DNA from: a virus
Reading direction: 5' to 3' (one strand)
Virus record (IMG/VR): IMGVR_UViG_3300002835_000732
Location: 1 to 31,048 of that record
Length of the DNA stretch: 31,048 nt
The notes below the pieces were generated by a model that was not told the DNA's origin, made no database searches, and saw only the letters and a program-made list of their open reading frames with translations. Positions 4,603 through 22,829 of this stretch are shown piece after piece. Numbering within the stretch: the stretch's first letter is position 1; each line of letters starts with the position of its first letter. A program made the translations under genes and the position numbers.

Positions 4603-5010
4603 ATGATTAAACTAAAAACTTTAATTGAAGAAAATGCAGCTGCTATTGGTCAACAATCTGTTAGTGCAGAACCACAAAAGATGACCAAGGAAGACAAAAA
4701 AATGTTGGCCCAAATGGTAGCAGAATACAATGAATACGGTAAAGTATTACGTAATGTAAATGAAATTGCTCAAGTATCTGAAAAGCTTTGTAAGATTGCT
4801 GGCATGGCAGAAAATTATGCATTACAAGAATGTGGTGATTGGATGCAAGCCAATGTAGCTAAGAGACACTTTGCTGAATTGAAGAAGTTGTCTGAAGGAT
4901 TTCGTAAATTAGCATCTGAATGTTATGAAAATAACAAACAAATGACTGCTCTATATGAAGATATGGGACACATTTATGAAAAGTATTTTGAAATTAATGA
5001 TCCTAAATAA
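4603..5010 (+). CDS. Helical late protein, probable internal/core protein
   Basis: 135 residues. The N terminus MIKLKTLIEE contains an LIE site and resembles the T4 capsid-targeting peptides that are removed by the prohead protease. The rest is highly helical (MTKEDKKMLAQMVAEYNEYG, then two more long amphipathic helices) with three cysteines and no recognisable catalytic motif. It lies between protease and scaffold, has its own late-type promoter and is closed by a strong terminator. Function unknown; packaging in the head is inferred from the N terminus and position. Confidence 0.72.
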   Translation: MIKLKTLIEENAAAIGQQSVSAEPQKMTKEDKKMLAQMVAEYNEYGKVLRNVNEIAQVSEKLCKIAGMAENYALQECGDWMQANVAKRHFAELKKLSEGFRKLASECYENNKQMTALYEDMGHIYEKYFEINDPK

Positions 5011-5036
5011 CTAAACGCTAAACTGTGGTAAAAGAA

Positions 5037-5066
5037 AACCCCGCCTTCTGGCGGGGTTTTTATTTT
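5037..5066. terminator. Bidirectional intrinsic terminator
   Basis: A perfect 9-bp stem, AACCCCGCC / GGCGGGGTT, with a TTCT loop is flanked by T-runs when read from either strand. It separates the rightward head gene ending at 5010 from the leftward genes ending at 5066, and so serves both convergent transcripts. Confidence 0.9.
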
Positions 5067-5386
5067 TAAGGTGTTTCAACTGAACCAAACGTGTTAATCA
5101 TATCCATCATTTGATCAAAGTTTTTATACACATGTTTTCTATCATTCATTATTAACCAATATCCTTGGGCAGTTTTATAAATAACAAAGTTTAATGATAT
5201 CATATCACTGTTTCTGTCAACTTTTAGTCTGAATCTTGTATCACCATCAGGTTCAAATCCCATACCAATTAACATGTCTACTTCTTTCCAATCCCAACCA
5301 TTTGGGTGGTCAATATCATCAATTTTATATTCACCGTTTGTGGAATCAAAACCTTCTTTTTTAATAAATGATTTTAAATGCGTCAT
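5066..5386 (-). CDS. Small leftward protein, unknown
   Basis: 106 residues. The N terminus MTHLKSFIKKEGF is similar in style to the short amphipathic leaders of nearby late proteins but has no clean (L/I)-x-E site. A mixed alpha/beta domain follows (FRLKVDRN, ISLNFVIYKTAQGYWLIMND). I do not recognise a family. Its ATG overlaps the stop of the upstream minus-strand gene in an ATGA arrangement, so the two are translationally coupled. It ends at the bidirectional terminator. Confidence 0.65.
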   Translation of the reverse strand: MTHLKSFIKKEGFDSTNGEYKIDDIDHPNGWDWKEVDMLIGMGFEPDGDTRFRLKVDRNSDMISLNFVIYKTAQGYWLIMNDRKHVYKNFDQMMDMINTFGSVETP

Positions 5387-6000
5387 ATATTTACTTTCAT
5401 TGAATTATTAATGAACTTGACTATTTCACTTTCAATTTTACTCTTTTTACTTAAATCTGTTTTTTCTCCTTCAATTAATGCTTTGATTGGATCAGACAAT
5501 TTAGAATATACTATGGTTTTTTCTTCTAAACTAGCAGCATTTTTCTTTTCTACATAAAATATAATATACTTAAAACTAGTTTTACTACTATCAGATTCGT
5601 TTATTAGTTTTTTAATTACAAAGTAAAATGTATTTTCACCAATACTTTTTTCAAAAGTTAACTCCATACCTCTGTCAGTATCTTCTTTGTTAATGTTAAA
5701 TTTTAGAGTATCTTTAATTTTATCAATTTCAAACTGTTCAAAATTAATACCTTTGTTTTTTGTCAATTCAGCTTTTAGTGTTACGTCACTTACTTCAGAA
5801 TTTGCTGTTTCACTTAACAAAGATTCTTTAAGAGATCTACGTAAAACTTCTTTCAATTTAGACTTGATTTCATTCTTTTTTACATCTGGTACGTTTGCAT
5901 GAAGAGCAGCTAAATATTTTTTAACACTGCCTTTGGTACATCCAACTTTTTTACCAGTATCTTTTTTGTAAATGCAATTACCTTTTATTTTATATGGCAT
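5383..6000 (-). CDS. Leftward late protein with basic CTKG N-terminal module
   Basis: 205 residues from the ATG at 6000. A longer frame starting at 6036 is rejected because a TATTTATT late-type motif stands 5 bases before the 6000 start, the spacing seen at other late genes. The N terminus MPYKIKGNCIYKKDTGKKVG is a short basic module (with CTKGSVKKYLAALHAN following) that I recall from unrelated phage proteins. Residues about 50-70 contain LKEVLRRSLKESLLSE, with several L-x-E sites, followed by a mixed alpha/beta domain. Its function is unknown. It is coupled by ATGA overlap to the downstream gene and lies antisense to the main head operon. Confidence 0.7.
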   Translation of the reverse strand: MPYKIKGNCIYKKDTGKKVGCTKGSVKKYLAALHANVPDVKKNEIKSKLKEVLRRSLKESLLSETANSEVSDVTLKAELTKNKGINFEQFEIDKIKDTLKFNINKEDTDRGMELTFEKSIGENTFYFVIKKLINESDSSKTSFKYIIFYVEKKNAASLEEKTIVYSKLSDPIKALIEGEKTDLSKKSKIESEIVKFINNSMKVNI

Positions 6001-6005
6001 AATAC

Positions 6006-6013
6006 AATAAATA
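6006..6013 (-). promoter_or_regulatory. Leftward late-type promoter (TATTTATT)
   Basis: Read on the minus strand this is TATTTATT, one base different from TATTTATA, and it ends 5 bases before the ATG at 6000. Finding the motif in the same place on the other strand supports its being a directional promoter and not just AT-rich background. Confidence 0.5.
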
Positions 6014-6041
6014 TCTAAAATTTTTATTACTTTCATTTTTT

Positions 6042-6150
6042 TATTTATATTTATTTAACAGTATTACGACATTCTTTGTCGCATAAATTAATAAAAAATT
6101 ATTATTGAAGTTTACCCTCTAATAACTTCAGGAAACCCAAAGGAAATATT
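6042..6150 (+). promoter_or_regulatory. Late-type promoter and structured leader of the scaffold gene
   Basis: TATTTATA at 6042-6049 is followed by a leader of about 100 bases. The leader contains a 5-bp hairpin, CGACA/TGTCG (6067-6081), and near the ATG an AAAGGA Shine-Dalgarno-like sequence (about 6139-6145). This is one of the few late genes here with a long leader and a visible ribosome-binding site, which may reflect high expression of scaffold and capsid protein. Confidence 0.5.
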
Positions 6151-7137
6151 ATGTCAGATTTATTAAAGGAAGCTATTGCTGACGCTAAGGCTGTACGTGC
6201 TACTGCTCTAGCAAATGCAAAAGCCGCATTAGAAGAATCATTCAAGCCAACATTGGAAGCAATGTTAGCTGAAAAACTAAAGAGTGAAATTGGTATGGAA
6301 GATGAAGCAGTTCATTCTTCTGATATTGGTTCAGGTAAAAGTGTAGCACCACTTGGTACACAATCTACCAACCAAGATCCAGGCGCAAATCAAATGTTTG
6401 AAGAATCAGATGAAGAAGTAACAAGTGAAGAACTTGATGAAATTCTTGCTGAACTTGAAAGAGAAATGGGAGATGAACCAGCTGCTCCAGCACCTGCTCC
6501 AGAAGCTCCAGTAGCTGCTGAACCTGATGTTGAAATTCCAGCACCAGCTCCTGCTCCAGAAGCCCCAGTTGCTCCTGCTCCAGAAGCTCCAGTAGCTGCT
6601 GAAGAAGTAGAAGAAGTTGATGAAGAAATCAATCTACAAGAACTTCTAGACACCTTGAGTGAAGAAGTTGAAGAAGTAGATGAAGCTAAGAAACATGATT
6701 CTGAAGAAAAAGAAGAAGAAGATAAAGAAGAAGTAAAAGAACAAACTGAAGAATCTGTTCAATTGGCTGAAGCTTTGAATACCGTTCAATTCCTACGTGA
6801 TCAATTGAATGAAATCAATCTTTTGAATGCTAAGTTGTTGTACACCAACAAGTTGTTCAATAAGTTCTCATTGAACCAAGCTCAAAAGATGAAGGTAGTA
6901 GAAACTTTCGACTTAACCAGCTCCATCCGTGAAGTTAAGTTGAGTTATAAAATTTTGTCCGAATCACTTAGTTCAGGTGGATCAGCTGTCAAGAAACCAA
7001 ATACAGCTGCACAAACTATCACCGAAGGTTTGGCAAGTAAACCAGTTGCATCAACAGCTCCTAAGAAGGAATTGATTGTTGAAAACAGCAACGTGATGGC
7101 TTCAAGATTCCAAAGACTTGCCGGAATTAAGAAGTAA
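6151..7137 (+). CDS. 22: Prohead core scaffold protein (T4 gp22-like)
   Basis: 328 residues, strongly acidic, and placed directly before the capsid gene as in T4. It should form the inner core on which the capsid shell assembles and then be degraded by the gp21 protease. The N terminus MSDLLKEAIADAKAVRA is helical with LKE and later LEE/LEA sites. Residues about 110-150 are Pro/Ala/Glu repeats built on PAPAPEAPVA. An acidic stretch of EE/VDE runs follows, and the C-terminal half is helical and ends in MASRFQRLAGIKK. The Pro/Ala/Glu section is longer than in T4 gp22. The start has an AAAGGA site upstream. Confidence 0.88.
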   Translation: MSDLLKEAIADAKAVRATALANAKAALEESFKPTLEAMLAEKLKSEIGMEDEAVHSSDIGSGKSVAPLGTQSTNQDPGANQMFEESDEEVTSEELDEILAELEREMGDEPAAPAPAPEAPVAAEPDVEIPAPAPAPEAPVAPAPEAPVAAEEVEEVDEEINLQELLDTLSEEVEEVDEAKKHDSEEKEEEDKEEVKEQTEESVQLAEALNTVQFLRDQLNEINLLNAKLLYTNKLFNKFSLNQAQKMKVVETFDLTSSIREVKLSYKILSESLSSGGSAVKKPNTAAQTITEGLASKPVASTAPKKELIVENSNVMASRFQRLAGIKK

Positions 7138-7187
7138 AAAATTAAAACAAGGCAAGTAAACAAAAAACTAAAATACAGAAAGAAAAT

Positions 7188-8879
7188 ATGAGTGATATTA
7201 AGAGTCTATTGACAAACAATATGAACCCACAAGCTAAGTTGATGACTGAAACTCGTGGATTGCAAAACAAATGGGACAAGACAGGTCTTCTTGAAGGTCT
7301 AGAAGGCATTGAAAAGGCCAATATGTCTATCCTATTGGAAAACCAAGCAAAGCAATTGCTTGATGAATCTACCTCTACAGGTACTTCTGGTAACAGTGAA
7401 CAATGGGCTGGCGTAGCTCTTCCATTGGTTCGCCGTGTATTCGCTGAAATCTCCGCTAAGGAATTCGTTTCAGTTCAACCAATGAACCTACCATCTGGTC
7501 TAATCTTCTATCTAGACTTCAAGTACGGCACCAACCGTAACGGTCTACCAGGATCTAATCCATTCAGTGGTTCATCCATGTTCGGTGGTACTGGCATCAA
7601 GCTAGGTTCTACTGATTCTCCAGAAAACGGTCTATATGGTGCTGGTCGTTATTCTTACACCAGTAACTATTTCACCCAATCATTGAGCACCACTTCAGGT
7701 TCCGCAACCTTGAGTGATCTAAACTTTGATAGCTCAATTACATCAAGTACATTGCCATTCACTGGTCAAAAGATCAATGTTATAGTTGGTACTAACACAA
7801 TTAACACTGACTTGAATGCTGTAAGAAGCTTCACCATCAGTGCTTCTGGTATCAATCCAGCTAACGTAATCAATGAATTGACTAAGGTATATAACACTGG
7901 TTCTCTAACCACTGCTAACTACTACATTGTACAATTCATTGTAACTGGTTCAACTGCTGCAGGTAACGCCAGTGGTGCCGCAGTCCTAACTTATACAAAG
8001 CAACCAACTGATCAAACCCGTGGTGACTTTGAAGATACCAATCCATTCAAGGGTGAAGCTGTTAATAACGGTATTGACAAGGGTACTGATATCAACATTC
8101 CAGAAGTTAACTTGGAACTAAAGAGTGAACCAATTGTTGCTAAGACCCGTAAGTTGAAGGCAGTCTGGACCCCAGAATTGGCTCAAGACTTGAATGCTTA
8201 CCACAGCATTGACGCAGAAGCAGAATTGACTGCTCTATTGAGTGAATATGTATCAATGGAAATTGATCTTGAAATCATGGACATGTTGATCAGTGCTGCT
8301 CCAGCATTGACTACTGAAGCTTGGTCCGCCGTAATTGGTAAGGAACTAGTCAAGGGTGCAAATGACAGTGCAGGTCTACCAACCTTCACCGTAAACAATG
8401 ATTCAACCAATCGTACCGCTTACGTAAAGAGCACTTGGTACCAAACTCTTGGTAACAAGATCCAAAAGGTATCTAACAAGATTCACCAATTGACCCTACG
8501 TGGTGGTGCTAACTTCTTGGTTGTAGGACCAGACGTAGCCACTGTATTGGAATCCATCCCAGGATACGTTGTAAACACTGACGGTGACAGTGCTAAGTTC
8601 GCAATGGGCGTAAGCCGTGTTGGTTCTTTTGCTTCCCGTTTCCAAGTTTACAAGAACCCATACATGCAAGAAAACACAATCTTGCTTGGTTTCCGTGGTA
8701 ACAACTTCCTAGAAACCGGTGCAGTTTATGCTCCATATATTCCATTGGTACAAACTCCATTGGTATATGATCCAATCAACTTCACTCCACGTAGAGGTGT
8801 AATGACCCGTTATGCCAAGAAAGTAGTCCGCCCAGAATTCTACGGCAAGATATATGTTGGTGATTTGAACCAAGTCTAA
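7188..8879 (+). CDS. 23: Major capsid protein (T4 gp23-like)
   Basis: 563 residues, close to T4 gp23 length, HK97-type fold expected. Family landmarks are EQWAGVALPLVRRVFAEI (about 71-88), the FYLDFKYG block near 107, LKAVWTPELAQDLNAYHSID (about 323-342), and the C-terminal FTPRRGVMTRYAKK and PEFYGKIYVGDL segments. The N-terminal propeptide contains many LxE sites; a likely maturation cut is after Glu60 (QLLDE-STST), near the Glu65 cut in T4 gp23. The gene is followed by a strong terminator. Every glutamine codon I read is CAA, in contrast to the NAD genes further on. Confidence 0.96.
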   Translation: MSDIKSLLTNNMNPQAKLMTETRGLQNKWDKTGLLEGLEGIEKANMSILLENQAKQLLDESTSTGTSGNSEQWAGVALPLVRRVFAEISAKEFVSVQPMNLPSGLIFYLDFKYGTNRNGLPGSNPFSGSSMFGGTGIKLGSTDSPENGLYGAGRYSYTSNYFTQSLSTTSGSATLSDLNFDSSITSSTLPFTGQKINVIVGTNTINTDLNAVRSFTISASGINPANVINELTKVYNTGSLTTANYYIVQFIVTGSTAAGNASGAAVLTYTKQPTDQTRGDFEDTNPFKGEAVNNGIDKGTDINIPEVNLELKSEPIVAKTRKLKAVWTPELAQDLNAYHSIDAEAELTALLSEYVSMEIDLEIMDMLISAAPALTTEAWSAVIGKELVKGANDSAGLPTFTVNNDSTNRTAYVKSTWYQTLGNKIQKVSNKIHQLTLRGGANFLVVGPDVATVLESIPGYVVNTDGDSAKFAMGVSRVGSFASRFQVYKNPYMQENTILLGFRGNNFLETGAVYAPYIPLVQTPLVYDPINFTPRRGVMTRYAKKVVRPEFYGKIYVGDLNQV

Positions 8880-9010: not shown

Positions 9011-10438
9011 ATGACACTTGCAGAATTAAAATCATTAATAAAAGAAGTATTGCTTGAAGCAGTACCGTTTGATAAAGCAACTGACATTGAATATGGACTA
9101 AAAGCCAAATATGATGAATTGGGTGATTATACATTTGGTGTAGAATTTGAATTTGAACCTGTTGTAGAAGAACAGAATTTATCAACTGATCAAATCATAG
9201 AAAAGTTATCAGATCTGATGGGTGCATCATACAGTTATGATAATGGATTAACTGATGCTTATAATTCATGGGTTGATGAACAAAGAAATGAAGCAGCAAA
9301 AAGATGGAATCGTTATGGAACTATTGATAATATTGATAGATATGATGAAGAATATGGTCCAATGAGTGTAGATACATTTGATAGTAGTGTATCTGAACCA
9401 GTTGAAAGTGATTATGCTACTGAAGAGGAATACAATGAAGCATATGAAAAATATGATGAAGTAAGAAATGAAGTGGACAGTGAATATACTCGTTGGGAAA
9501 GAAGAAATCAAGGTGATTATGTTGATGAATATTTAAGACTTTTAGCAAGAAGTGGAGATTGGACTGATTTTGTTTCAGATAGTGAAATGAATGTCACTGA
9601 TATGGAAGGTGGTATTGATTCTGCGTATAATTTATTAGATAGTCTGGGTGAAGATGTAAGAAAAGATGATAAACCAGATAAAGACACATGGGCAGTTGGT
9701 GAAGATGGACCAAATGTTGAAATAAGAAGTAGACATATGAGACAAACAGGTAATGATTTTAATATTATTTCCAAAGTAGGAAATTGGGTAAGTGATCAAG
9801 CAACACATGGAAAAACTGGAATGCATGTTCATATAGGAGTTCCAAGTGATTTTGATATGTTTGATGTATTGGCAATGAGTACATTGGTTGATGAAAAAGC
9901 TATTAAATCTGCAGTAGCCATGGACAGAGATTTTAACAGTTTTGCCAAATTGAGAAGAAGTTTGAGTAACGCAATTTATAATAGAATTCATGAATACATG
10001 CGTAGACAATCTGAAAATGTACCAAAATCTTTTACGCTTACAAACGCACAAATGAAAGAAGTATTAGCTCATTTTGATCGCAATCACGGTACAAATATTG
10101 CAGCATTTAATGAACATAAAACAATTGAATTTAGATATTTGGGATCTGATATGGCAGATCAAGTATTAAAGTGGATATCTTATTTCTTGTTGTTACCTCG
10201 TATCGCTAAGAGCAGAAATCAAGTAAAATTGGATACTATTTATAATGAACAAATAGTAGCTACAAGAATGCCTGGTAAGATTAAGTTTGATTTGTTTACT
10301 ACAGATGACCCAAGAACTAGTGTTCCAATGCCAAAAGAACCTGCGGATGTAATTAAACAAAAAGCATTTGAATTACCAAGCAAATTGGATATTGCAAAAC
10401 AACAGGCTGCTGCTAAAAAACAATCGGGAACACAATAA
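9011..10438 (+). CDS. Putative amidoligase (glutamine-synthetase-like fold) with capsid-targeting-like N terminus
   Basis: 475 residues. The order GVEFEFE (43-49), PNVEIRS with E237 and R239, GMHVHIG (270-276) and TIEFRYL (371-377) matches the pattern of the amidoligase_2 family, ATP-dependent COOH-NH2 ligases of the glutamine-synthetase superfamily. Such enzymes are predicted to form amide or peptide bonds, and the acidic, His and Arg residues would bind metal and ATP. A long, very acidic Tyr/Asp/Glu-rich insertion occupies about residues 85-230. The N terminus MTLAELKSLIKE-VLLE-AVPF carries two (L/I)-x-E sites, like peptides removed by the prohead protease. A degenerate late-type motif lies at 8962-8969. 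The substrate is unknown; modification of capsid or injected host proteins is inference. Confidence 0.72.
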   Translation: MTLAELKSLIKEVLLEAVPFDKATDIEYGLKAKYDELGDYTFGVEFEFEPVVEEQNLSTDQIIEKLSDLMGASYSYDNGLTDAYNSWVDEQRNEAAKRWNRYGTIDNIDRYDEEYGPMSVDTFDSSVSEPVESDYATEEEYNEAYEKYDEVRNEVDSEYTRWERRNQGDYVDEYLRLLARSGDWTDFVSDSEMNVTDMEGGIDSAYNLLDSLGEDVRKDDKPDKDTWAVGEDGPNVEIRSRHMRQTGNDFNIISKVGNWVSDQATHGKTGMHVHIGVPSDFDMFDVLAMSTLVDEKAIKSAVAMDRDFNSFAKLRRSLSNAIYNRIHEYMRRQSENVPKSFTLTNAQMKEVLAHFDRNHGTNIAAFNEHKTIEFRYLGSDMADQVLKWISYFLLLPRIAKSRNQVKLDTIYNEQIVATRMPGKIKFDLFTTDDPRTSVPMPKEPADVIKQKAFELPSKLDIAKQQAAAKKQSGTQ

Positions 10439-10457: not shown

Positions 10458-11927
10458 ATGACATTGTTTGAACACATTTTGATTGAAAGCAGAGTGGATG
10501 ATTTTAAGAAAATGCTAAGCCAACGGTTTAGTATTGATTATGTTCAAAAGATTATCAATAGAGATACCAGCAAAAACCACAAGAATTTGCTGTGGATAGG
10601 TAAGATACTAAAAACAGAACCAGATATCAATGATGAAGATTTGTTTAAAAATCTGGAAATATTCAACAAAGTAGCATCATCCACTGATTTATATAGTTTT
10701 AGAGATTACAGTACATTTTTGAATTTCTTACAAAAGAAGAGTAAAGAAGTACAAATGGGTAAGATGGCTCAAATCAAAGCTGGTTCACATACAATTAAAG
10801 ATGATAAAAGATGGTTGGTAGTTGCACCACAAACACATGATGCAAGTAGATATTTTGGTGGTGGTACCAGTTGGTGTATCAGTACAAGCAATGATAGATA
10901 CTGGAAAGATTATTATTACGCACAAACCATAGTAATGATTAAAGATAGAACTAAGAAACCAGATAATGACTTGTTCAAAGTTGCCATTGTTGGTAATGCC
11001 TATGAACAACTTTGGGATACTCGTTTTAATGATAAGATAGATAAAATTAGAGAATTATCAAAACATGTAGATTTATATAATGTCAATGACAATAGATTAA
11101 GTGGTGACCAAAAAATTAATTATTTAGGACAATTACCAGAAGATTTAATTGAAGACTTGATGAATTATTTTAATGATGATGAAATCTATGAAAGACAAAA
11201 CGATCATTATTATGAACTTGCAAGAGAAAGATATGATAATGGTGGTAAAGAAGAACTTTTGAAATCATTGTTTAATACTACGGTAGCATATTTTGATGCG
11301 GATACAGATTTGGATGAAGATGCATTTGGTGATTTAATGAGCAGACAATTTGCAGATGAAATTCAAGATGGTAATTGGGATGAATTTTTAAGTGAACTAT
11401 GGGGTGCATGTATGACTTATCAAGGTGTAGATGATGATTCTTTTTATGCTGAAGTAAATACAAGAAATTTCAAAAACTTGATAAGTGATACCAGTTATGA
11501 TTTACAAACATATCTTGATTTAGCCAAAGAAATATTGAAAAATGAGGATATAGTAAATATGGATGACATCATAAAAGATGCGTTGATTAAAACATCTGAT
11601 AATGGTGATCCATACACTGTAATTAAAAGACAAGCAAATCAATTAAAAGATACAAATTATAATGATATAATATTATCCTCATTAAATGCATATAATGCAA
11701 AAAATAATCCTACTTTTATTCAAGGACAGAAATCTTTGGGTCCTGATTTTATGGGTATTGTAAATAAATTTAAACCAAAGAACATTGAGGATGTAATTAA
11801 AGTATTGAGTATCAATCCTAGAGCAAAGGATATGATTGATCAGATACAAAGATACAGAAGAGATTTGTATGAATCCAAGAAAAAGCGGTCAATTAAATAT
11901 AGAGATTTCTACAAATTTAAAGGTTGA
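10458..11927 (+). CDS. Large late protein with GGGTSWC motif and capsid-targeting-like N terminus
   Basis: 489 residues. The first ten, MTLFEHILIE, end in LIE and closely resemble in length and shape the ten-residue T4 capsid-targeting peptides, for example that of internal protein III. Residues about 105-200 hold a conserved-looking core: RWLVVAPQTHDASRYFGGGT, then SWCIS (Cys140), a DRYWKDYYY patch and VMIKDR. I recall similar G-x-GT-x-WC segments in uncharacterised phage proteins but know no function. The C-terminal half is helical and acidic, ending in a basic tail. The TGA stop is embedded in the -35 box of the next promoter. A packaged internal protein is the favoured reading. Confidence 0.72.
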   Translation: MTLFEHILIESRVDDFKKMLSQRFSIDYVQKIINRDTSKNHKNLLWIGKILKTEPDINDEDLFKNLEIFNKVASSTDLYSFRDYSTFLNFLQKKSKEVQMGKMAQIKAGSHTIKDDKRWLVVAPQTHDASRYFGGGTSWCISTSNDRYWKDYYYAQTIVMIKDRTKKPDNDLFKVAIVGNAYEQLWDTRFNDKIDKIRELSKHVDLYNVNDNRLSGDQKINYLGQLPEDLIEDLMNYFNDDEIYERQNDHYYELARERYDNGGKEELLKSLFNTTVAYFDADTDLDEDAFGDLMSRQFADEIQDGNWDEFLSELWGACMTYQGVDDDSFYAEVNTRNFKNLISDTSYDLQTYLDLAKEILKNEDIVNMDDIIKDALIKTSDNGDPYTVIKRQANQLKDTNYNDIILSSLNAYNAKNNPTFIQGQKSLGPDFMGIVNKFKPKNIEDVIKVLSINPRAKDMIDQIQRYRRDLYESKKKRSIKYRDFYKFKG

Positions 11928-12914: not shown

Positions 12915-13871
12915 ATGAAAGAAAAAGTTACAAAGCCTACTGATGTAGCCGTTATCGTTGGACGTTTCCAGGTTAATGAATTGCATGATGCTCATATTGA
13001 CCTGATTACTTCCGTCACACAGAAACATGACCGTGTATTGGTGTTTCTTGGAAATAGTATCATCCGCAATACTCTCAACAATCCTCTTGACTATCGTGCA
13101 AGGCGGTCAATGATTGCAGAGAAGTTTCCTACTGTGGAGATTCATTATATCAATGACAATCCTTCTGATACTGCTTGGTCTAAGAATCTGGATAAATTGA
13201 TTGGTGAACAGTTGCTTCCTATGCAGACTGTAACACTGTATGGTTCCCGTGATAGTTTCCTCAAGTGTTACTGTGGTAAATTCAATACGTGTGAACTTGA
13301 AGCTACTACTTTTATCAGTGGTACTGAGGTTCGCCGCCGTGTGTGTAACAATTATCCTCCTACAGCAGATTATAGGGCTGGTATGATTGCTGCCACTGCC
13401 TACCGTTTTCCTACTGCATTTCAGACTGTTGATATTGCAGTTGTAAATGATAAGAATGAACTGCTTCTTGCACGTAAGCCAGATGAAAAGAAGTGGCGGT
13501 TTATTGGTGGATTTAGTGATCCTACTTCTACTTCACTTGAAGAAGATGCCAAACGTGAAGTGCAGGAAGAAGCTGGTGTAGAAGTTGGTAATATCACTTA
13601 TCTTGGTTCTACACTTATCAATGACTGGCGTTACCGTGGAGAAATTGATAAGATCAAGACCGCATTGTTTGTTGCCAAGTATGTGTTTGGCAAACCAGAG
13701 GGTGCAGATGATGTTGCTGAAGTGAAGTGGGTATCCATCAACAATTTGACTAAAAATGACATTGTTGAAACCCACCATGTTCTGATTGATATGTTCAATG
13801 AAAAGTTCAGTGGAAATCGGGAACTTCAGGATAGGTTTTTCAAACCGAATTTTGATGGAAAAATGCCTTGA
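12915..13871 (+). CDS. nadM: Bifunctional NMN adenylyltransferase / Nudix hydrolase
   Basis: 318 residues, the usual length for NadM-Nudix fusions. The N-terminal half is a nucleotidyltransferase that joins NMN and ATP to make NAD+: GRFQVNELHDAHIDLI (16-31) carries an HDAH variant of the HxGH motif, and ISGTEVRRR (134-142) is the second phosphate-binding motif. The C-terminal half is a Nudix domain with IGGF (187-190) and REVQEEAG (204-211). The first Glu of the usual Nudix box appears replaced in the DPTSTS stretch, and the loop is one residue longer. Nudix partners of this type usually act on ADP-ribose. It directly precedes the NadV gene. All seven Gln codons are CAG, unlike the late genes. 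Confidence 0.9.
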   Translation: MKEKVTKPTDVAVIVGRFQVNELHDAHIDLITSVTQKHDRVLVFLGNSIIRNTLNNPLDYRARRSMIAEKFPTVEIHYINDNPSDTAWSKNLDKLIGEQLLPMQTVTLYGSRDSFLKCYCGKFNTCELEATTFISGTEVRRRVCNNYPPTADYRAGMIAATAYRFPTAFQTVDIAVVNDKNELLLARKPDEKKWRFIGGFSDPTSTSLEEDAKREVQEEAGVEVGNITYLGSTLINDWRYRGEIDKIKTALFVAKYVFGKPEGADDVAEVKWVSINNLTKNDIVETHHVLIDMFNEKFSGNRELQDRFFKPNFDGKMP

Positions 13872-13896
13872 CTTTGAGTGAAGTCTAGGGTAAAGT
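13868..13896 (+). promoter_or_regulatory. Early-type promoter of the NadV gene
   Basis: TTGACT, a 17-base spacer ending AGGG, then TAAAGT. The TGA stop of the NadM gene lies inside the -35 box. A leader of about 47 bases precedes the ATG at 13950 and holds AAGGTACAGATAAAA (13913-13927), the second copy of the motif in front of NadM. Confidence 0.72.
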
Positions 13897-13912
13897 ATTA
13901 AAAGTAAAGATT

Positions 13913-13927
13913 AAGGTACAGATAAAA
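13913..13927 (+). repeat. Leader motif shared by the two NAD+ genes (copy 2)
   Basis: AAGGTACAGATAAAA differs by one base from 12898-12912. It lies in the untranslated leader 22 bases before the NadV start codon and could be a regulatory or translation element specific to the NAD genes. Confidence 0.5.
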
Positions 13928-13949
13928 ATCAATACAGAAAGATAAAATT

Positions 13950-15344
13950 ATGAATAAGAACATTTGTTTGACTACGGATTCCTATAAGTTGAATCACTGG
14001 AATCAGTATCCCGCTGGCACTGAAAAGGTTTATAGTTACTTTGAATGCCGTAAGGGTGCTAAGTTTGCTGAAACTCCATTCTTTGGACTTCAGTATATTA
14101 TTAAGAATCATCTTGAGGGTGTAGTTGTGACCCGTGAAAAGATTGAAAATGCAGCCAAGTTGTGTAAGGCTCACTTTGGTAGTGAGAAGTATTTCAACCG
14201 TGAAGGTTGGGAATATATTCTGAATAACTATGGCGGTAAGTTGCCTGTTGTTATCAAGGCAGTTGAAGAAGGAACTGTTGTTCCTATCAACAATGTGTTG
14301 ATGACTATTGAAAACACTGACAATAAGTGTTTCTGGCTCACTAACTTCTTGGAGACTATTTTGTCTCAGGTTTGGTATCCTATTACGGTGGCTTCACTGT
14401 CCCGTGAAGTTAAGGTTACTTTGAATGAGTATTTTACTCTTACCTCCGATGGTGGATTGCTTAACTTTGGATTGCATGATTTTGGATTTAGGGGTGCCAG
14501 CTCTTGGGAATCGGCGGGTATCGGGGGGGCTGCTCATTTGATTAATTTCTTGGGGACCGATACGGTAGTGGCTATGGAAGTAGCCGTGAACTATTATAAT
14601 GCTGATCTTAATGGTTTGGCGTTTTCCGTTGCTGCCACTGAACACTCTGTTATGACTGCTCTTGGTAAGAATGGTGAAGAACAGGTTGTTGAGAATCTTC
14701 TGAACGAGTATCCTACGGGTATTTTGTCTGTTGTTTCTGACAGCTATGACATTTATAACTTCGTGAGCAACATTGTTGGCACTAAGTTCAAGGATCGTAT
14801 TCTTGACCGTGACGGTGTGTTTGTTGTTCGTCCTGACTCTATTACTCCTACCCATCCTACTCCAGAGGAAGAAATGGTTTGGATTATGGAGAATTTGTGG
14901 GCTAATATCGGCGGAACCATTAACAACAAGGGATACAAGGTTATCAACCCCAAGGTTCGTGTGTTGTGGGGTGATGGAATTGACATTGATGGTATCAAGA
15001 AGATTCTGTATGCTGTTACCAAGGCTGGATTTGCAACTGAGAACATTGCTTGTTTTGGTATGGGTGGAGGTTTGTTGCAGAAGGTAAATCGTGATACTCA
15101 GCGTTGTGCTTTCAAGTGTAGTGCTCAGTATCGTGATGGTCAGTGGTATGACATTCAGAAGAATCCCAAGGATGTTTCCAAGGCATCCAAGAAGGGCAAG
15201 CTCAAGTTGATCAAGGTTGATGGTGAATTTGAGACTGTTGGTGAAAATGATCCTGGTGAGGATTATTTGAAGGTTGTTTTTTATGATGGCGTATTGCTCA
15301 ATGAAGTTGACTTTGCTACTATTCGTAAGAACGCTGCTTTGTAA
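13950..15344 (+). CDS. nadV: Nicotinamide phosphoribosyltransferase
   Basis: 464 residues, full length for the NAMPT/NadV family. It transfers the phosphoribosyl group of PRPP to nicotinamide to give NMN, the first step of two-step NAD+ salvage. Diagnostic segments are TTDSYKLNHWNQYP (8-21), GLHDFGFRGASSWESAG (164-180), ATEHSVM (219-225, with the expected catalytic His222), SDSYDIYN, VRPDS and WGDGID. The next step is done by the NadM protein encoded directly upstream, and a PRPP synthetase homologue lies three genes downstream. All nine Gln codons are CAG. Such genes occur in other T4-like phages (for example KVP40). Confidence 0.95.
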   Translation: MNKNICLTTDSYKLNHWNQYPAGTEKVYSYFECRKGAKFAETPFFGLQYIIKNHLEGVVVTREKIENAAKLCKAHFGSEKYFNREGWEYILNNYGGKLPVVIKAVEEGTVVPINNVLMTIENTDNKCFWLTNFLETILSQVWYPITVASLSREVKVTLNEYFTLTSDGGLLNFGLHDFGFRGASSWESAGIGGAAHLINFLGTDTVVAMEVAVNYYNADLNGLAFSVAATEHSVMTALGKNGEEQVVENLLNEYPTGILSVVSDSYDIYNFVSNIVGTKFKDRILDRDGVFVVRPDSITPTHPTPEEEMVWIMENLWANIGGTINNKGYKVINPKVRVLWGDGIDIDGIKKILYAVTKAGFATENIACFGMGGGLLQKVNRDTQRCAFKCSAQYRDGQWYDIQKNPKDVSKASKKGKLKLIKVDGEFETVGENDPGEDYLKVVFYDGVLLNEVDFATIRKNAAL

Positions 15345-15373
15345 TTGACAAATCAAAGGTTTGCGGTTATCCT
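15345..15373 (+). promoter_or_regulatory. Early-type promoter of the Pth2 operon
   Basis: TTGACA, a 17-base spacer, then TATCCT. It starts immediately after the NadV stop codon and ends 19 bases before the ATG at 15393. It should drive the coupled genes from 15393 to about 18096. Confidence 0.62.
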
Positions 15374-15392
15374 AACTAAAACCGCTTCTTTT

Positions 15393-15767
15393 ATGACTGA
15401 TAAAGTTAAACAAGTTATTGTAATGCGTAAAGACCTCAATATGAGTAAGGGTAAAATGGTTACTCAAGGTGCTCATGCAAGCGTTGCATTTCTTACCCAT
15501 CTAGTCCGTGGATATAATGGACAACCACTTCTTCTGAGTAAAGCTGAAAAAGAATGGGTATATGGCACTTTCTTCAAAGTGTGTGTGGGTGTAGATAGTG
15601 AAAAGGAACTGCTTGACATTGGATATAATGCTATTGCGATGGGTATATCAGTCAAATACATTGAAGAAACCGCCGGGTTTGATAAACCTACCGTTACTTG
15701 TATAGCTATCGGACCAGATTATAGTTCTGTAATTGATCCTGTCACTAAACATCTAAAACTTCTATGA
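15393..15767 (+). CDS. Peptidyl-tRNA hydrolase, Pth2 type
   Basis: 124 residues from the ATG at 15393; a TTG start at 15345 would put the promoter inside the gene and is rejected. The sequence follows the Pth2 family through its length: VKQVIVMRKDLNMSKGK with the catalytic-region Lys and Asp, TQGAHASVAFL, a KVCVGVDSEKELLDI strand-helix, then TVTCIAIGP and the C-terminal LKLL. Pth2 enzymes release peptides from peptidyl-tRNA and are typical of archaea and eukaryotes, rarer in bacteria, with some in phages. Its stop overlaps the next ATG (ATGA). It could recycle tRNA during translation stress caused by host defence. Confidence 0.88.
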   Translation: MTDKVKQVIVMRKDLNMSKGKMVTQGAHASVAFLTHLVRGYNGQPLLLSKAEKEWVYGTFFKVCVGVDSEKELLDIGYNAIAMGISVKYIEETAGFDKPTVTCIAIGPDYSSVIDPVTKHLKLL

Positions 15768-15997
15768 GTGTAATTTACCAACAGATTAACCAACGCCAGT
15801 ATATTGTACGAGCCAATATAGATTTTCCTCAAAGAGAGGTTGGTAGTTTAGTTATGGATGTGGATGGTTATTTTTATTTCTGGCCAGTAGATAACAATGG
15901 TGCTTGGTCATCATATCATCTAAAAGAAGTAGCAAACAAATTAGATGAAATTAATAAATCGTGGAATGAACAAGTTGAAAAGGATTTGAACAAATGA
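15764..15997 (+). CDS. Small protein in the PRPP operon, unknown
   Basis: 77 residues. The N-terminal two thirds look beta-rich (QRQYIVRANIDF, GSLVMDVDGYFYFWPVDNNG), ending in a helix (LKEVANKLDEINKSW). No family is recognised. It overlaps both neighbours by 4 bases: ATGA with the Pth2 gene and with the PRPP synthetase homologue. It is therefore tightly coupled to them, but its job is not visible. Confidence 0.68.
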   Translation: MSVIYQQINQRQYIVRANIDFPQREVGSLVMDVDGYFYFWPVDNNGAWSSYHLKEVANKLDEINKSWNEQVEKDLNK

Positions 15998-16953
15998 AAA
16001 CTATTAAACTATTTGCAGGTACAAGCAATCTACCATTGGCTCAGAAGATTTCACAAAATCTAAATGAACCACTTGGAAAGATTTACCACCACAAATTTCC
16101 GAGTGGAGAAACTTACTGTCAATTCAAGGAAAACATTCGTGGTAGTGATGTATTTTTAATTCAAGGCATTACCAATCCAGCCAATGAAAACCTAATGGAG
16201 TTGCTTGTTATGGCTGATGCGGCTAGGCGTGCTAGTGCAGAACGAATTACTGCGGTAATTCCATACTTTGGTTATGCCCGACAAGATCGTAAGGACAAGA
16301 GCCGTGTTCCTATTACAGCTAGGTTAGTAATGGATTTGATTGCTACTGCTGGTATTGATAGGGTAGTAACTATGGATCTACATAGTCCACAGGTGGGTGG
16401 TTTTACCAATCTACCATTTGATCATCTTACATTTGAACCAGTATTGAGTGAATATATTAGTACCAAGTATCATTCATTAGCCTATAGGGATAGTGTTGTA
16501 TTGATGGCACCTGATGTTGGTGCGGTCAAACGTGTTGAAAAGTATGCGGATCTACTAAAGAGTGATTTTGGATTTATTAGTAAGAAGCGTGTAAGTGATA
16601 CCAAGGTTGAACTACAGAACATTGTGGGTGATGTAAAAGATAAACACGTAGTTATTATTGATGATCTTACAGAAAGTCTTGGTACAATGGTTCAGGCGGC
16701 TAATGAGTGTAAGAAACAAGGTGCTACAAAGGTAACTTGTGCTGTTACGCATGGTTGTTTGACTGATATGGGTATCAAACGATTGGCGGAGAATAATAGT
16801 ATTGATGAATTTATTCATAGTAATACAACAAATACATGGGGTAATATTGGATTTAAACCAGCTAATGTTACAGAATTGGATGTAAGTATGTTGTTTGCTA
16901 AGGCTATTCGTAGTATCAACAAGAATGAAAGTGTGAGTGAATTGTTTGTATGA
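15994..16953 (+). CDS. prs: Ribose-phosphate pyrophosphokinase homologue (PRPP synthetase-like)
   Basis: 319 residues, normal length. Family marks are LFAGTSNLPLAQKI (6-19), FPSGETY (35-41), the ATP-binding PYFGYARQDRK (90-100), VTMDLHSPQ with His130, and APDVGAVKR (162-170). PRPP synthetase makes PRPP from ribose-5-phosphate and ATP, the co-substrate NadV needs. The PRPP-binding loop is unusual: IIDDLTESLGT (221-231) in place of the common DDxIDTGGT pattern. This may mean altered phosphate or sugar handling. A known relative of Prs, the ADP-ribose pyrophosphate synthetase of phage NAD+ reconstitution pathway 1, is an alternative. It overlaps both neighbours by 4 bases. Confidence 0.88.
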   Translation: MKTIKLFAGTSNLPLAQKISQNLNEPLGKIYHHKFPSGETYCQFKENIRGSDVFLIQGITNPANENLMELLVMADAARRASAERITAVIPYFGYARQDRKDKSRVPITARLVMDLIATAGIDRVVTMDLHSPQVGGFTNLPFDHLTFEPVLSEYISTKYHSLAYRDSVVLMAPDVGAVKRVEKYADLLKSDFGFISKKRVSDTKVELQNIVGDVKDKHVVIIDDLTESLGTMVQAANECKKQGATKVTCAVTHGCLTDMGIKRLAENNSIDEFIHSNTTNTWGNIGFKPANVTELDVSMLFAKAIRSINKNESVSELFV

Positions 16954-18737: not shown

Positions 18738-19829
18738 ATGAAGATTGATATTTCCTCAATTGATCGTGAATCGTTTATGGTCCATGAACATATTATTTAT
18801 GGAGAAGTTGTATATTTGGTACAGCCAAAACATATAGGCGCAAAGTGGAAAAATGACAATTTACACTTTCGTTCATCTGTATGGAATTATAATGGAGAAT
18901 TGATCAGTGCATCATTTCCAAAATTCTTTAACTGGTCAGAACAACCAGATTTGTCTCCTGTTCCTAATTCATTGAAGCATTGTACCGTTGTTGAAAAACT
19001 TGACGGTAGCACTTTAATTGTTAGCAAGTATAATGGACAATATATTCTACGAACCCGTGGAACTGTTGATGCTTCTACTATGGCTAATGGTTTTGAGTTA
19101 GAATTATTCAAGTCAACTATTCTAAATAAGTTGCAGGATAATAATGATACTTGGGGTTATTCTATCATTTGGGAATGGCTGTCTCCAATCAATAAAATTG
19201 TGCTATCGTATGGCGATGAACCTATATGGAAGTTGATTGGTTTTATTAATCATATCAACTATTCACTTGCACAACAAGATATGTTGGATGCTATGGCTAA
19301 GAAGTATGATTTACTTCGTCCAGAAATCTATACTTTTACTGATATATCTGATATGTTACAGATTGTAGATAAGTGGCAGAATAAAGAGGGTGTATGTTTA
19401 TATAGTAAGAATGACCAAGTTATTCATAAGATTAAAGCATCCAAATATCTCCTGTTACATCATCTAAAGTCTGAACTTAGTTCACTAGAAAAAGTATTGG
19501 ATGTCTGGCTAGAGCAAGGTATGCCTGACTATCAGACTTTCTATAACTATATCTTTACCACTTTTGATTTTGAGTTAGCAGAGCAAATTAAAGGTACAAT
19601 TAGCCGTATTTGTGATGCTAAGAAGGAAGTGGATCTGATTGTGAGTGGTATGAATGAGTTTGTGAATAACAGACTCAAGACTCTACCTACTCGTAAGTTA
19701 CAGGCTGAACAAGTAATTTCAGCTTATGGTAATACTAATAGAGCTTCATTTTTGTTCAAATTGCTTGATGGTAAGTCGTTAGGCAAAGAAGAATATAAGA
19801 AGTTACTATTTCAAGTATTGAAGAACTAA
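18738..19829 (+). CDS. RNA ligase, T4 Rnl1-like
   Basis: 363 residues, near the T4 Rnl1 length (374). The covalent nucleotidyltransferase motifs are in order: motif I EKLDGS with the AMP-acceptor Lys87, a conserved RTRG segment near 105-108, motif III WEWLSPINKIVLSY (145-158), motif IV EGVCLYS (217-223), motif V HKIKASKY (230-237). The upstream FPKFFNWSE block is also typical of Rnl1. The enzyme joins 5'-phosphate and 3'-OH RNA ends, and in T4 it repairs tRNA cut by host anticodon nucleases. A kinase and phosphoesterase that could prepare the ends are encoded at 24705-25827. It is followed by a strong terminator. Confidence 0.9.
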   Translation: MKIDISSIDRESFMVHEHIIYGEVVYLVQPKHIGAKWKNDNLHFRSSVWNYNGELISASFPKFFNWSEQPDLSPVPNSLKHCTVVEKLDGSTLIVSKYNGQYILRTRGTVDASTMANGFELELFKSTILNKLQDNNDTWGYSIIWEWLSPINKIVLSYGDEPIWKLIGFINHINYSLAQQDMLDAMAKKYDLLRPEIYTFTDISDMLQIVDKWQNKEGVCLYSKNDQVIHKIKASKYLLLHHLKSELSSLEKVLDVWLEQGMPDYQTFYNYIFTTFDFELAEQIKGTISRICDAKKEVDLIVSGMNEFVNNRLKTLPTRKLQAEQVISAYGNTNRASFLFKLLDGKSLGKEEYKKLLFQVLKN

Positions 19830-20169: not shown

Positions 20170-20201
20170 AACCTCACTATTAATTTAGTGGGGTTTATTT
20201 T
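20170..20201 (+). terminator. Terminator, TTAATT-loop type (copy 1)
   Basis: Stem AACCTCACTA / TAGTGGGGTT with one T:G wobble and a TTAATT loop, followed by a T-rich tract. It is nearly identical to the terminators at 21073 and 21888. Confidence 0.82.
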
Positions 20202-20208
20202 TTGTTTC

Positions 20209-20216
20209 TATTTATA
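20209..20216 (+). promoter_or_regulatory. Late-type promoter motif TATTTATA
   Basis: An exact TATTTATA ends 5 bases before the ATG at 20222 and lies directly behind the terminator of the previous unit. No Shine-Dalgarno sequence. Confidence 0.6.
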
Positions 20217-20221
20217 AACAT

Positions 20222-21058: not shown

Positions 21059-21072
21059 AATACTTTAACATT

Positions 21073-21104
21073 AACCCCACTATTAATTTAGTGGGGTTTT
21101 TATT
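21073..21104 (+). terminator. Terminator, TTAATT-loop type (copy 2)
   Basis: A perfect 10-bp stem, AACCCCACTA / TAGTGGGGTT, with a TTAATT loop, followed by a T-run. It closes the LamG unit. Confidence 0.9.
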
Positions 21105-21114
21105 TTTTTGTATA

Positions 21115-21122
21115 TATTTATA
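21115..21122 (+). promoter_or_regulatory. Late-type promoter motif TATTTATA
   Basis: An exact TATTTATA lies 26 bases before the ATG at 21149, leaving a short leader that holds AAAGGA. This is one of the late units with a conventional ribosome-binding site. Confidence 0.5.
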
Positions 21123-21148
21123 TTTAACACAAAGGAACATTTTTAACT

Positions 21149-21865
21149 ATGAAGAAAGACATTTTAAATGAAACATTTAATAAACATACATTTTTATTGA
21201 AGAAAAAGTTGTATGAACAAGGTGTAATCCAACAACAACCAATTCAAGAAGTTGAATTAGAAGAAGGATTGAAAGATATAGCACTTGCTACCCTTCTTGG
21301 ATTAAGCACATTGTTTAATATGACTGGTAAAGCAGATACCTCTACTACAGGTCAACCAACAGTTTCCGCTAGTAGTGAACTTAGCCGTGTTAAAAGTGCA
21401 AAACAAAAAGCAGAAGGTGTAGCCACTGAAATAGCACAAAGATTGAACGGTGGTGATGATATTAGTAAATCCACTGCAAAAAGAATTTTAGATGATGTAA
21501 TTAAATTTAATAAAACAAATAAATTTGGATCTAAAGCTCAAATGGACTATGCAGTTGAACTTGCTGCATCAAATGATCCAAATCTATATTCTGGTATAAA
21601 TATAAAACCACGTAATACATCTGAATTAATATCTCAAACAGCTCTTAAGGATTATATATCAGTGAATGATTCTGAAATATTAGAAAAAATAAACACTACG
21701 GTTCAAGAAATTGCACAATCATCTAAAGACGCTTTAGTTAAAAAAGCGAATATTACAGATTCAGATGTTTTAGGTTTAGTTTCAGGATTTTGTATGGATT
21801 CAGCTAAAGGTGATTTTCTACAAATGGTAGCTCAAAAGCTTGTAGATAATGCTACTCGTCCATAA
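21149..21865 (+). CDS. Late protein with capsid-targeting-like N terminus, unknown
   Basis: 238 residues. The N terminus MKKDILNE-TFNKHTFLLKKK contains an LNE site, and a second acidic block, IQEVELEEGLKDIA, sits near residues 34-47. A hydrophobic stretch follows at about 48-60 (LATLLGLSTLFNM), too short and weak to be certain as a membrane segment. The remainder is helical and Ser/Ala/Lys-rich. No family is recognised; I recall similar EGLKDIALATLLG segments in uncharacterised phage proteins. It has its own promoter and terminator. A packaged internal protein is the favoured guess. Confidence 0.68.
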   Translation: MKKDILNETFNKHTFLLKKKLYEQGVIQQQPIQEVELEEGLKDIALATLLGLSTLFNMTGKADTSTTGQPTVSASSELSRVKSAKQKAEGVATEIAQRLNGGDDISKSTAKRILDDVIKFNKTNKFGSKAQMDYAVELAASNDPNLYSGINIKPRNTSELISQTALKDYISVNDSEILEKINTTVQEIAQSSKDALVKKANITDSDVLGLVSGFCMDSAKGDFLQMVAQKLVDNATRP

Positions 21866-21887
21866 ATAATATAAAATATTAATCAAT

Positions 21888-21920
21888 AACCCCGCTATTA
21901 ATTTAGTGGGGTTTTTTTAT
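21888..21920 (+). terminator. Terminator, TTAATT-loop type (copy 3)
   Basis: Stem AACCCCGCTA / TAGTGGGGTT with one G:T wobble and a TTAATT loop, followed by TTTTTTT. The 3' arm and loop are identical to the copies at 20170 and 21073. Confidence 0.9.
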
Positions 21921-21930
21921 TTCAAGTCAA

Positions 21931-21938
21931 TATTTATA
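21931..21938 (+). promoter_or_regulatory. Late-type promoter motif TATTTATA
   Basis: An exact TATTTATA ends 5 bases before the ATG at 21944 and directly follows the previous terminator. Confidence 0.6.
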
Positions 21939-21943
21939 TTGAT

Positions 21944-22330
21944 ATGACTCAATCAGAATTAAAGCAATTAATCAAAGAATGTTTAAATGAAATAGATTTT
22001 GCACCTGGTTTTAGACCAACACAAGATTTAACCATAGTTTCAACTGTAACTGGTAGTGATGTAGATCATTTAAAAAAATATGTACTAGAATTACATAGAG
22101 TTTTAACGGCTAATTTTGGTAATGATGTACAGTTTGAAGAAAAATTAAAAATGTCTATATTACCAAATAAAGACAAACAAATTGAAACCACATTCACCAT
22201 TATTGATATAATTGATGAGTTAATGTCAAAAACAGTAAGAGAAAATCTACAAGATATACATGAACAATTAACAATGTGGTCAATAAATCAAGATTTAGTA
22301 ATAGACTTTACTTTCAAGATTAAAAAATAA
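21944..22330 (+). CDS. Late protein with capsid-targeting-like N terminus, unknown
   Basis: 128 residues. The N terminus MTQSELKQLIKE-CLNE-IDFAP is strikingly like that of the amidoligase (MTLAELKSLIKE-VLLE-AVPF), with both (L/I)-x-E sites at the same positions, 12 and 16. The rest is alpha/beta, with LTIVSTVTGSDVDHLKKYVL, ETTFTIIDIIDELM and a final DLVIDFTFKIKK strand. No enzyme family is recognised. It is the first of a two-gene unit: the RelE-like gene starts after one base. It might be a partner or inhibitor of that protein, or simply a second cargo. Confidence 0.68.
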   Translation: MTQSELKQLIKECLNEIDFAPGFRPTQDLTIVSTVTGSDVDHLKKYVLELHRVLTANFGNDVQFEEKLKMSILPNKDKQIETTFTIIDIIDELMSKTVRENLQDIHEQLTMWSINQDLVIDFTFKIKK

Positions 22331-22331
22331 T

Positions 22332-22829
22332 ATGAATGATATATTCACAACAACATTTGAAAAACATAAGAAACTGCTTCTTGAATCATTAAATGATTAC
22401 AACTGGGAAGAAAAAGTAGACTGGAGTGTATTTGATACTACAGAAGATAATTCTGGAGCATTTGAAAAGTTATTGGGTATATCAGAAGCTAAAAATCCAC
22501 AATCTGTTACGCCTACAACACCACCATCTCTTACTATAGTAAGTGTTCCTACAGGTGATTGGTGGGAATTGTATAACAATTTACCAGAACCAATAAAAAG
22601 AACTGCTATAGAAAGATATAAGTTATTTTTAAAAGATTCAAAAGAACCATCATTACATTTCAAACCTTTAAAACATAGAAAAGGTAATTATTGGAGTATT
22701 GCTATAAACGCAAATTACAGATCAGTTGGAATTAAAACTGACATACCAAATGGATTCAAAATTGTATGGGTATTTGTAGGAAATCATAATCAATATGATG
22801 CCTTTAAAAATAGTTTACCAACATCATAA
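22332..22829 (+). CDS. RelE/ParE-like toxin-fold protein with capsid-targeting-like N terminus
   Basis: 165 residues. Residues about 76-162 follow the RelE/ParE/HigB pattern: LPEPIKRTAIERYKLFL, SLHFKPLKHRKGNYWSIAI, NANYRSVGI with Arg130, then the strand KIVWVFVGNHNQYDAF with the typical H-x-x-Y turn. Such proteins usually cut mRNA on the ribosome or poison gyrase. Free toxins are about 90-110 residues. This one carries about 75 extra N-terminal residues: an amphipathic start ending in LLE (Glu18), an acidic stretch, ISE (Glu52) and a Pro/Thr linker. No classical antitoxin is visible unless it is the gene one base upstream. Packaging and injection is inference. Confidence 0.72.
   Translation: MNDIFTTTFEKHKKLLLESLNDYNWEEKVDWSVFDTTEDNSGAFEKLLGISEAKNPQSVTPTTPPSLTIVSVPTGDWWELYNNLPEPIKRTAIERYKLFLKDSKEPSLHFKPLKHRKGNYWSIAINANYRSVGIKTDIPNGFKIVWVFVGNHNQYDAFKNSLPTS

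What the first reader, a model, noticed from the sequence alone, without database searches (positions are those of the whole stretch)
4603..22829. A set of late proteins sharing capsid-targeting-like N termini: a packaged effector cargo
Late genes scattered over the window start with a short amphipathic peptide ending in (L/I)-x-E, the T4 prohead protease signature: MTLFEHILIE at 10458, MTLAELKSLIKE at 9011, MTQSELKQLIKE at 21944, MIKLKTLIEE at 4603, MNISLKKLIFE at 3369, MKKDILNE at 21149, and LLLE near residue 18 at 22332. In T4, internal proteins and Alt carry about ten-residue peptides of this type, which bring them into the prohead core and are then cut off. The 9011 and 21944 leaders align with both cut sites at the same positions although the rest of the proteins are unrelated. 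This suggests a shared targeting tag attached to different enzymes that are injected with the DNA.
Basis: partly seen in the sequence, partly recalled or inferred. Interest (0 to 1): 0.85.

Follow-up and report, generated by a model that had tools for sequence, protein, structure and literature searches.

The report
Capsid-targeting tags on phage cargo proteins
An uncultured T4-like phage and its relatives carry the same kind of short starter peptide on dozens of otherwise unrelated proteins, very probably an address label that loads them into the virus head (where the label is cut off) so that they can be delivered into the host with the DNA.

Summary
The bare (L/I)xE rule is at chance level in the window (13 of 46 genes, 14 expected). 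The informative signal is h-x-x-h-h-x-E (h = hydrophobic) ending at residue 10 or 12, the spacing mapped genetically in the T4 IPIII capsid-targeting sequence (residues 4, 7, 8, 10). In 725 protein families from relatives, 34 end this motif at residue 10 and 26 at residue 12; chance predicts about 1.5 per position. Unsupervised comparison of N-termini of unrelated proteins recovers the 9011/21944 leader as the largest shared-leader community (33 body families); Sec-like signals come second. The window encodes a gp21-type prohead protease, and its major capsid protein has an invariant L-(L/I)-x-E maturation site, so the cut rule is supported independently. Of seven proteins listed, two leaders are firm (9011, 21944), three good (10458, 4603, 3369) and two weak (21149, 22332). 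Proteins 3369 and 4603 are conserved head-operon proteins, probably core rather than effectors; in the window only the amidoligase has a recognised enzyme domain. Best reading: a T4-type capsid-targeting propeptide, diversified and much more widely used than in T4. Packaging, cleavage and injection are inferred, not shown.

The parts
111..1979 (+). gp20-type portal protein (head module context)
   Evidence: PF07230 E 2e-70
3369..3401 (+). Leader MNISLKKLIFE of a conserved head-operon protein (3369-3953), probably core; homologues read MPIFLKKILE, MSISLKRLLE, MVKLKTLLE, MISLVKLLTE
3955..4575 (+). gp21-type prohead protease, the predicted leader-cutting enzyme
   Evidence: PF03420 E 7.5e-28; phrog_207 1.9e-53; T4 gp21 structure 5jbl E 2.4e-14 with the SSRGMGS Ser region aligned
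4603..4632 (+). Leader MIKLKTLIEE (h4,h7,h8,E10) of a small conserved head-operon protein (4603-5010), probably core
   Evidence: 42 homologues beside the protease, mostly MIKLKxLxE; register
6151..7137 (+). Scaffold-like core protein, start MSDLLKE conserved in relatives (MSNLLKE/MSKLLKE)
   Evidence: position upstream of MCP and homologues
7353..7370 (+). Predicted maturation site of the major capsid protein: Q-L-L-D-E60|S
   Evidence: E60 in 61/61 distinct homologues, P3 L/I in 60/61, P2 variable; MCP PF07068 2e-73
9011..9058 (+). Leader MTLAELKSLIKE|VLLE|A of the amidoligase, sites E12 and E16
   Evidence: Variants keep L6, L9, I10, E12, L14, L15, E16 while residues 2-5 and 8 vary; member of the 33-family leader community
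9011..10438 (+). Amidoligase_2-domain protein, predicted packaged cargo (domain residues 40-385, after the leader)
   Evidence: PF12224 31.2 bits, cut-off 22
10458..10487 (+). Leader MTLFEHILIE (h4,h7,h8,E10) of a 489-aa phrog_17056 protein of unknown function (10458-11927)
   Evidence: L8 and E10 invariant in homologues at 46-51% identity while residues 2-6 vary; phrog_17056 E 1e-8
21149..21172 (+). Weak candidate leader MKKDILNE of a 238-aa protein (21149-21865)
   Evidence: Resembles 22332 leader (score 40) and immuto MKKQILSEQFKRMQ (38); best internal control 35
21944..21991 (+). Leader MTQSELKQLIKE|CLNE|I of a 128-aa protein (21944-22330)
   Evidence: A neighbouring unrelated gene in relative L106/G025 carries MTQSELKQLIKECLCEIDF; DNA 50/60 identical in the leaders, 8/30 just after
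22332..22829 (+). Weakly tagged 165-aa protein (LLLE at residues 15-18) with a possible ParE/RelE-like C-terminal domain
   Evidence: PF24732 E 0.0011, 19.4 bits, below cut-off 24.4; phrog_3066 toxin E 0.03; structure prediction failed, pLDDT 36

Best explanation
The leaders are T4-type capsid-targeting propeptides. A short amphipathic helix with hydrophobic residues spaced as in the T4 IPIII targeting sequence binds the scaffold core of the assembling prohead, so the attached protein is built into the core. The phage's gp21-type protease then cuts after Glu in (L/I)-x-E (residue 10 in MIKLKxLLxE-type leaders; 12 and possibly 16 in ELKxLIKExLxE-type leaders), the same rule as predicted for its major capsid protein, and frees the mature protein in the head. 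Some tagged proteins (3369, 4603) are head-core components; others (the amidoligase, 10458, 21944) are optional cargo, most plausibly ejected with the DNA to act at once in the new host. Shown computationally: leader sharing among unrelated proteins, register, conservation of the key residues, protease and predicted capsid site, clustering near head genes in several relatives. Inferred: targeting, cleavage, ejection and effector role.
For: Motif end position peaks at residue 10 (34 families) and 12 (26) against about 1.5 expected per position. In T4 IPIII, targeting maps to residues 4 and 7 and processing to 8 and 10, and gp21 cuts after L/I-x-E (PMC9026906): the same register. Unsupervised N-terminal comparison: family pairs at or above 28 bits, 17 at N-termini against 0.1 internally; largest community 33 body families including 9011 and 21944, second is Sec-like signals. 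The motif finds T4 ipII, ipIII, gp24 and gp2 among 8 hits in 68 T4 genes. Prohead protease. MCP site L-(L/I)-x-E60 invariant. Key residues conserved in 9011 and 10458 homologues. Tagged genes lie nearer the MCP: immuto p 0.0004, G002 0.006, G001 0.01, Mel 0.03. Leader shared at DNA level by adjacent unrelated genes with an abrupt end.
Against: No proteomics of this phage group was available. Location near the MCP is not significant in three relatives (p 0.07, 0.08, 0.48). Similar helices occur on baseplate-neighbour proteins (immuto 81525, Mel-JY01 162463), so not every motif hit need be a head protein. Mel-JY01 shows only marginal enrichment. Three of the 8 T4 hits are recognised targeting or processed leaders; the rest are not known to be. 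Ejection and effector function rest on analogy. The window motif was chosen post hoc, though tested on other genomes. Start codons in relatives come from a simple gene caller.
Confidence: 0.78

Rival explanations
1. The leaders are ordinary Leu/Lys/Glu-rich amphipathic N-terminal helices, frequent in AT-rich phage genomes, with no targeting role; (L/I)xE matches are chance.
For: Bare (L/I)xE is at chance in the window; such helices also occur on baseplate-neighbour proteins.
Against: Peaks at residues 10 and 12 far above internal rates; shared leaders on unrelated bodies; a shuffled N-terminus control gives at most 12-13 hits where 21-22 are seen in immuto and G001; not enriched in HTVC008M.
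Confidence: 0.1
2. The leader is an assembly tag for another purpose, such as binding the portal/membrane initiation complex or tail/baseplate, or all tagged proteins are structural core proteins that never enter the host.
For: Two of the window's tagged genes are conserved head-operon proteins; look-alike helices lie beside baseplate genes.
Against: Tagged proteins include enzyme-domain families unlikely to be structural (amidoligase, NT5C, CCA-adding, GNAT, ART-like); cleavable (L/I)xE matches the predicted capsid site; sporadic presence of cargo downstream of the MCP.
Confidence: 0.12
3. The shared leaders on unrelated proteins are remnants of recent gene duplication or recombination in gene arrays, kept without function.
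For: Adjacent genes in L106 share leader DNA (50/60) with an abrupt end; G024 has a tandem array with MIKLKDLLLEN leaders.
Against: Key residues are conserved while neighbouring leader residues vary in 9011 and 10458 homologues; the same leader type recurs in many phages and in non-adjacent genes.
Confidence: 0.05

Closest known systems
T4 capsid-targeting sequence of internal proteins IPI-III, Alt and gp24, cut by gp21
   Same: About ten N-terminal residues, hydrophobics at 4, 7, 8 and Glu at 10, cut after L/I-x-E, a leader shared by otherwise unrelated proteins, gp21-type protease (PMC9026906, PMC12373910)
   Different: Many more tagged families per phage group; ELKxLIKExLxE leader class with two candidate sites; different cargo such as amidoligase. 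Packaging and cleavage not shown.
Long propeptides of ejection proteins in giant phages phiKZ and SPN3US
   Same: N-terminal propeptides cut after Glu by a gp21-related protease; SPN3US gp53 and gp54 have identical first 15 residues on diverged proteins (PMC5694885)
   Different: There several propeptides exceed 100 residues and the cut is A-x-E or S-x-E; here 10-16 residues and L/I-x-E
Head-packaged ADP-ribosyltransferases and polyvalent proteins of tailed phages
   Same: Conflict-type enzyme domains predicted to be packaged; ART-PolyVal-like and other ART-like domains follow such leaders in relatives (PMC9503650)
   Different: Here small, mostly single-domain proteins with a short leader rather than large fusions; ART matches are below Pfam cut-offs

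Membership tests
T4-type capsid-targeted internal proteins | gp21-type prohead protease encoded in the same genome | tested here: met
   PF03420 7.5e-28, PDB 5jbl 2.4e-14
T4-type capsid-targeted internal proteins | Short N-terminal leader with targeting hydrophobics and L/I-x-E end | tested here: met
   9011, 21944, 10458, 4603 by motif and register, 3369 by motif at residue 11; not met in this register by 21149 and 22332
T4-type capsid-targeted internal proteins | Leader shared by proteins otherwise unrelated | tested here: met
   33-family community including 9011 and 21944; not individually significant for 21149, 22332, and only borderline for 10458, 3369, 4603
T4-type capsid-targeted internal proteins | Protease specificity of this phage is L/I-x-E | tested here: inconclusive
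   Predicted from the invariant MCP site L-(L/I)-x-E60 in 61 homologues; no cleavage measured
T4-type capsid-targeted internal proteins | Protein is in the virion, cut at the leader and ejected into the host | not testable with these tools
   Needs virion mass spectrometry and infection assays
Amidoligase_2 (PF12224) | Score above the curated cut-off | tested here: met
   31.2 bits against 22
ParE/RelE-type toxin (22332) | Score above the curated cut-off | tested here: not met
   19.4 bits against 24.4; no PDB match of that kind; structure prediction failed
Polyvalent proteins | Two or more effector domains in one chain | tested here: not met
   Window cargo shows at most one recognised domain each

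The most novel reading that the evidence does not exclude
This lineage of T4-like phages has turned the capsid-targeting propeptide into a general loading code, with several leader classes and a dozen or more tagged cargo genes per genome that are exchanged between phages, including enzyme classes not known as injected phage effectors, such as an amidoligase that would ligate peptides or metabolites in the host in the first minutes of infection.
Probability: 0.45. Interest if true: 0.82.

Novelty: new variant of a known kind. Interest (0 to 1): 0.64.

Why it matters
If right, the leader is a readable address code: it lets one list, from sequence alone, the proteins that uncultured T4-like phages load into their heads, most of them of unknown function. 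It would give a direct route to new injected anti-defence or host-takeover proteins, and could supply new short targeting tags for loading proteins into phage capsids. The prediction is cheap to test by virion mass spectrometry on a cultured relative.

Tried and rejected
Bare (L/I)xE enrichment: tested and rejected as evidence. Amidoligase (PF12224) in 22 contigs of relatives: none found, and the control search rang nowhere, so this does not show absence. tblastn of 9011, 10458 and 22332 against 50,697 phage records: no match. Structure prediction of 10458 (pLDDT 54) and 22332 (pLDDT 36) was too poor for a fold search. PDB sequence searches for ART-like cargo gave only weak hits. Considered a tag on the lectin-like protein at 20222: N-terminus no better than controls. 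No paper on immuto virion proteomics was found in the held library. Literature searches for an earlier description of such leaders in this group found only T4, giant phages and P1; the library is incomplete.

Full report
What was checked. The window is a 31-kb virus fragment with a T4-type head module: portal (111-1979, PF07230), prohead protease (3955-4575, PF03420), scaffold-like protein (6151-7137) and major capsid protein (7188-8879, PF07068). Its nearest described relatives by MCP are Microcystis phage Mel-JY01 and Flavobacterium phage immuto, at about 52% identity.

The stated criterion is not enough. (L/I/V/F/M)-x-E ending at residues 6-18 occurs in 13 of 46 window genes against 14.0 expected from internal segments of the same proteins. 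What stands out is h-x-x-h-h-x-E, with 7 genes against 1.3 expected. Because that pattern was chosen on the window, I tested it elsewhere: immuto 21/226 (4.0 expected), contig G001 22/167 (3.3), G024 19/126 (1.9, inflated by a tandem family), G002 10/141 (1.6), G006 10/122 (1.8), G025 7/87 (1.9). It was marginal in Mel-JY01 (9/245, 4.3) and in crAss-like phi14:2 (5/118, 1.9, or 3.3 against internal-Met windows), and not enriched in pelagiphage HTVC008M (5/200, 3.1).

Position is the most telling result. Over 725 body families, the motif ends at residue 10 in 34 families and at residue 12 in 26, against about 1.5 expected per position; neighbouring positions are much lower. The residue-10 form has hydrophobics at 4, 7 and 8 and Glu at 10. 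In T4 IPIII, targeting was mapped to residues 4 and 7 and processing to 8 and 10, and gp21 cuts after L/I-x-E (PMC9026906). The same scan of a 50-kb part of T4 finds ipII, ipIII, gp24 and gp2 among 8 hits in 68 genes.

Leader sharing without any motif. I compared N-terminal 25-residue stretches of all proteins whose bodies are unrelated. Family pairs at or above 28 bits number 17 at N-termini against a mean of 0.1 for internal segments; at or above 24 bits 40 against 2.6. The largest connected set has 33 body families in many phages and contains the window's 9011 and 21944 leaders; the next is Sec-like signal peptides, which shows that the method finds true N-terminal signals. In relative L106/G025 two adjacent unrelated genes carry MTQSELKQLIKECLCEIDF and MTKTELKQLIKECLCEIDF; their DNA is 50/60 identical over the leader and 8/30 just after. 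T4 internal proteins likewise share only their leader (PMC12373910).

Conservation within families. Amidoligase homologues keep L6, L9, I10, E12, L14, L15 and E16 while residues 2-5 and 8 vary. In 10458 homologues at 46-51% identity, L8 and E10 are invariant while residues 2-6 are not. Homologues of 4603 and 3369, next to the protease gene, mostly keep MIKLKxLxE and similar starts, with drift.

The cut rule. In 61 distinct MCP homologues the predicted maturation site reads L-(L/I)-x-E60, with E invariant, P3 L/I in 60 and P2 free. This supports the L/I-x-E specificity of this phage's protease independently of the leaders; it is a prediction, not a measured cut. The protease matches T4 gp21 (PDB 5jbl, E 2.4e-14) including the region of the catalytic serine.

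What is tagged. In the window, 3369 and 4603 are conserved members of the head operon and are best read as core proteins, not effectors. The amidoligase (PF12224 above cut-off; domain from residue 40, beyond the leader), 10458 (phrog_17056, unknown) and 21944 (unknown) are candidate cargo. 21149 and 22332 have leaders that resemble each other but no significant support; the ParE-like match of 22332 is below cut-off. In relatives, leaders of these types precede domains such as CCA-adding enzyme, NT5C 5'-nucleotidase, GNAT acetyltransferase, cytidylyltransferase and ART-like sequences, the last below cut-offs. In G002 and immuto the leader sits directly before the first DxDG strand of a 5'-nucleotidase. 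The genes just downstream of the MCP differ between relatives and include several different tagged families.

Location. Tagged genes lie closer to the MCP than other genes in immuto (p 0.0004), G002 (0.006), G001 (0.01) and Mel-JY01 (0.03), not significantly in G006, G007 and G004.

Limits. No virion proteomics was available; targeting, cleavage, ejection and effector function are inferred from T4. Start codons in relatives come from a simple gene caller. Look-alike helices beside baseplate genes show that the motif is not exclusive to head proteins. The contigs G024 and G025 are linked to the window by homologous genes, not shown to be the same phage.

Verdict. A real shared N-terminal leader, most probably a T4-type capsid-targeting propeptide used on far more protein families than in T4.

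Noticed in passing
12915-16953: Genes that by eye look like an NMNAT-Nudix fusion, a nicotinamide phosphoribosyltransferase and a PRPP synthetase: a possible NAD-restoring set of the kind phages use against NAD-depleting defences. Not tested with family searches.
   Followed up: no
L107:14617-17887 and L108:1548-4781 (contig G024): Tandem array of about ten genes beginning MIKLKDLLLEN with a second shared stretch IF(V/I)PRR(I/L)EDR, on partly unrelated bodies, ending with a Tpt1/ART-like LYHAT gene.
   Followed up: partly
immuto L082-L084 (MW353175 1803, 103806, 117631, 118632; 25061, 111675): Two further shared-leader classes on unrelated proteins: MENFDLKKFLVENKLTxNSxLLxE (four genes) and MKKQILSEQFxRMQxLAGIITES (two genes), several just upstream of the terminase.
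   Followed up: partly
L087:10276-12718 (Mel-JY01): Three neighbouring paralogues beginning MIKLKSLLQEIISDRVWHLT, possibly ART-like by eye; no Pfam match.
   Followed up: partly
18738-19829: RNA ligase of the T4 RnlA / tail-fibre attachment type (PF09511 7.5e-12; phrog_562 1.6e-32); a second ligase-like gene at 28733-29752 was seen by eye only.
   Followed up: partly
5066-6036 (minus strand): Two minus-strand genes inserted between the protease/core genes and the scaffold gene, no family match; one starts MTHLKSFIKKEG, superficially leader-like but not supported.
   Followed up: partly
25904-26380: DUF6915 protein (PF21866 4e-33) with a weak PHD-like antitoxin match.
   Followed up: no
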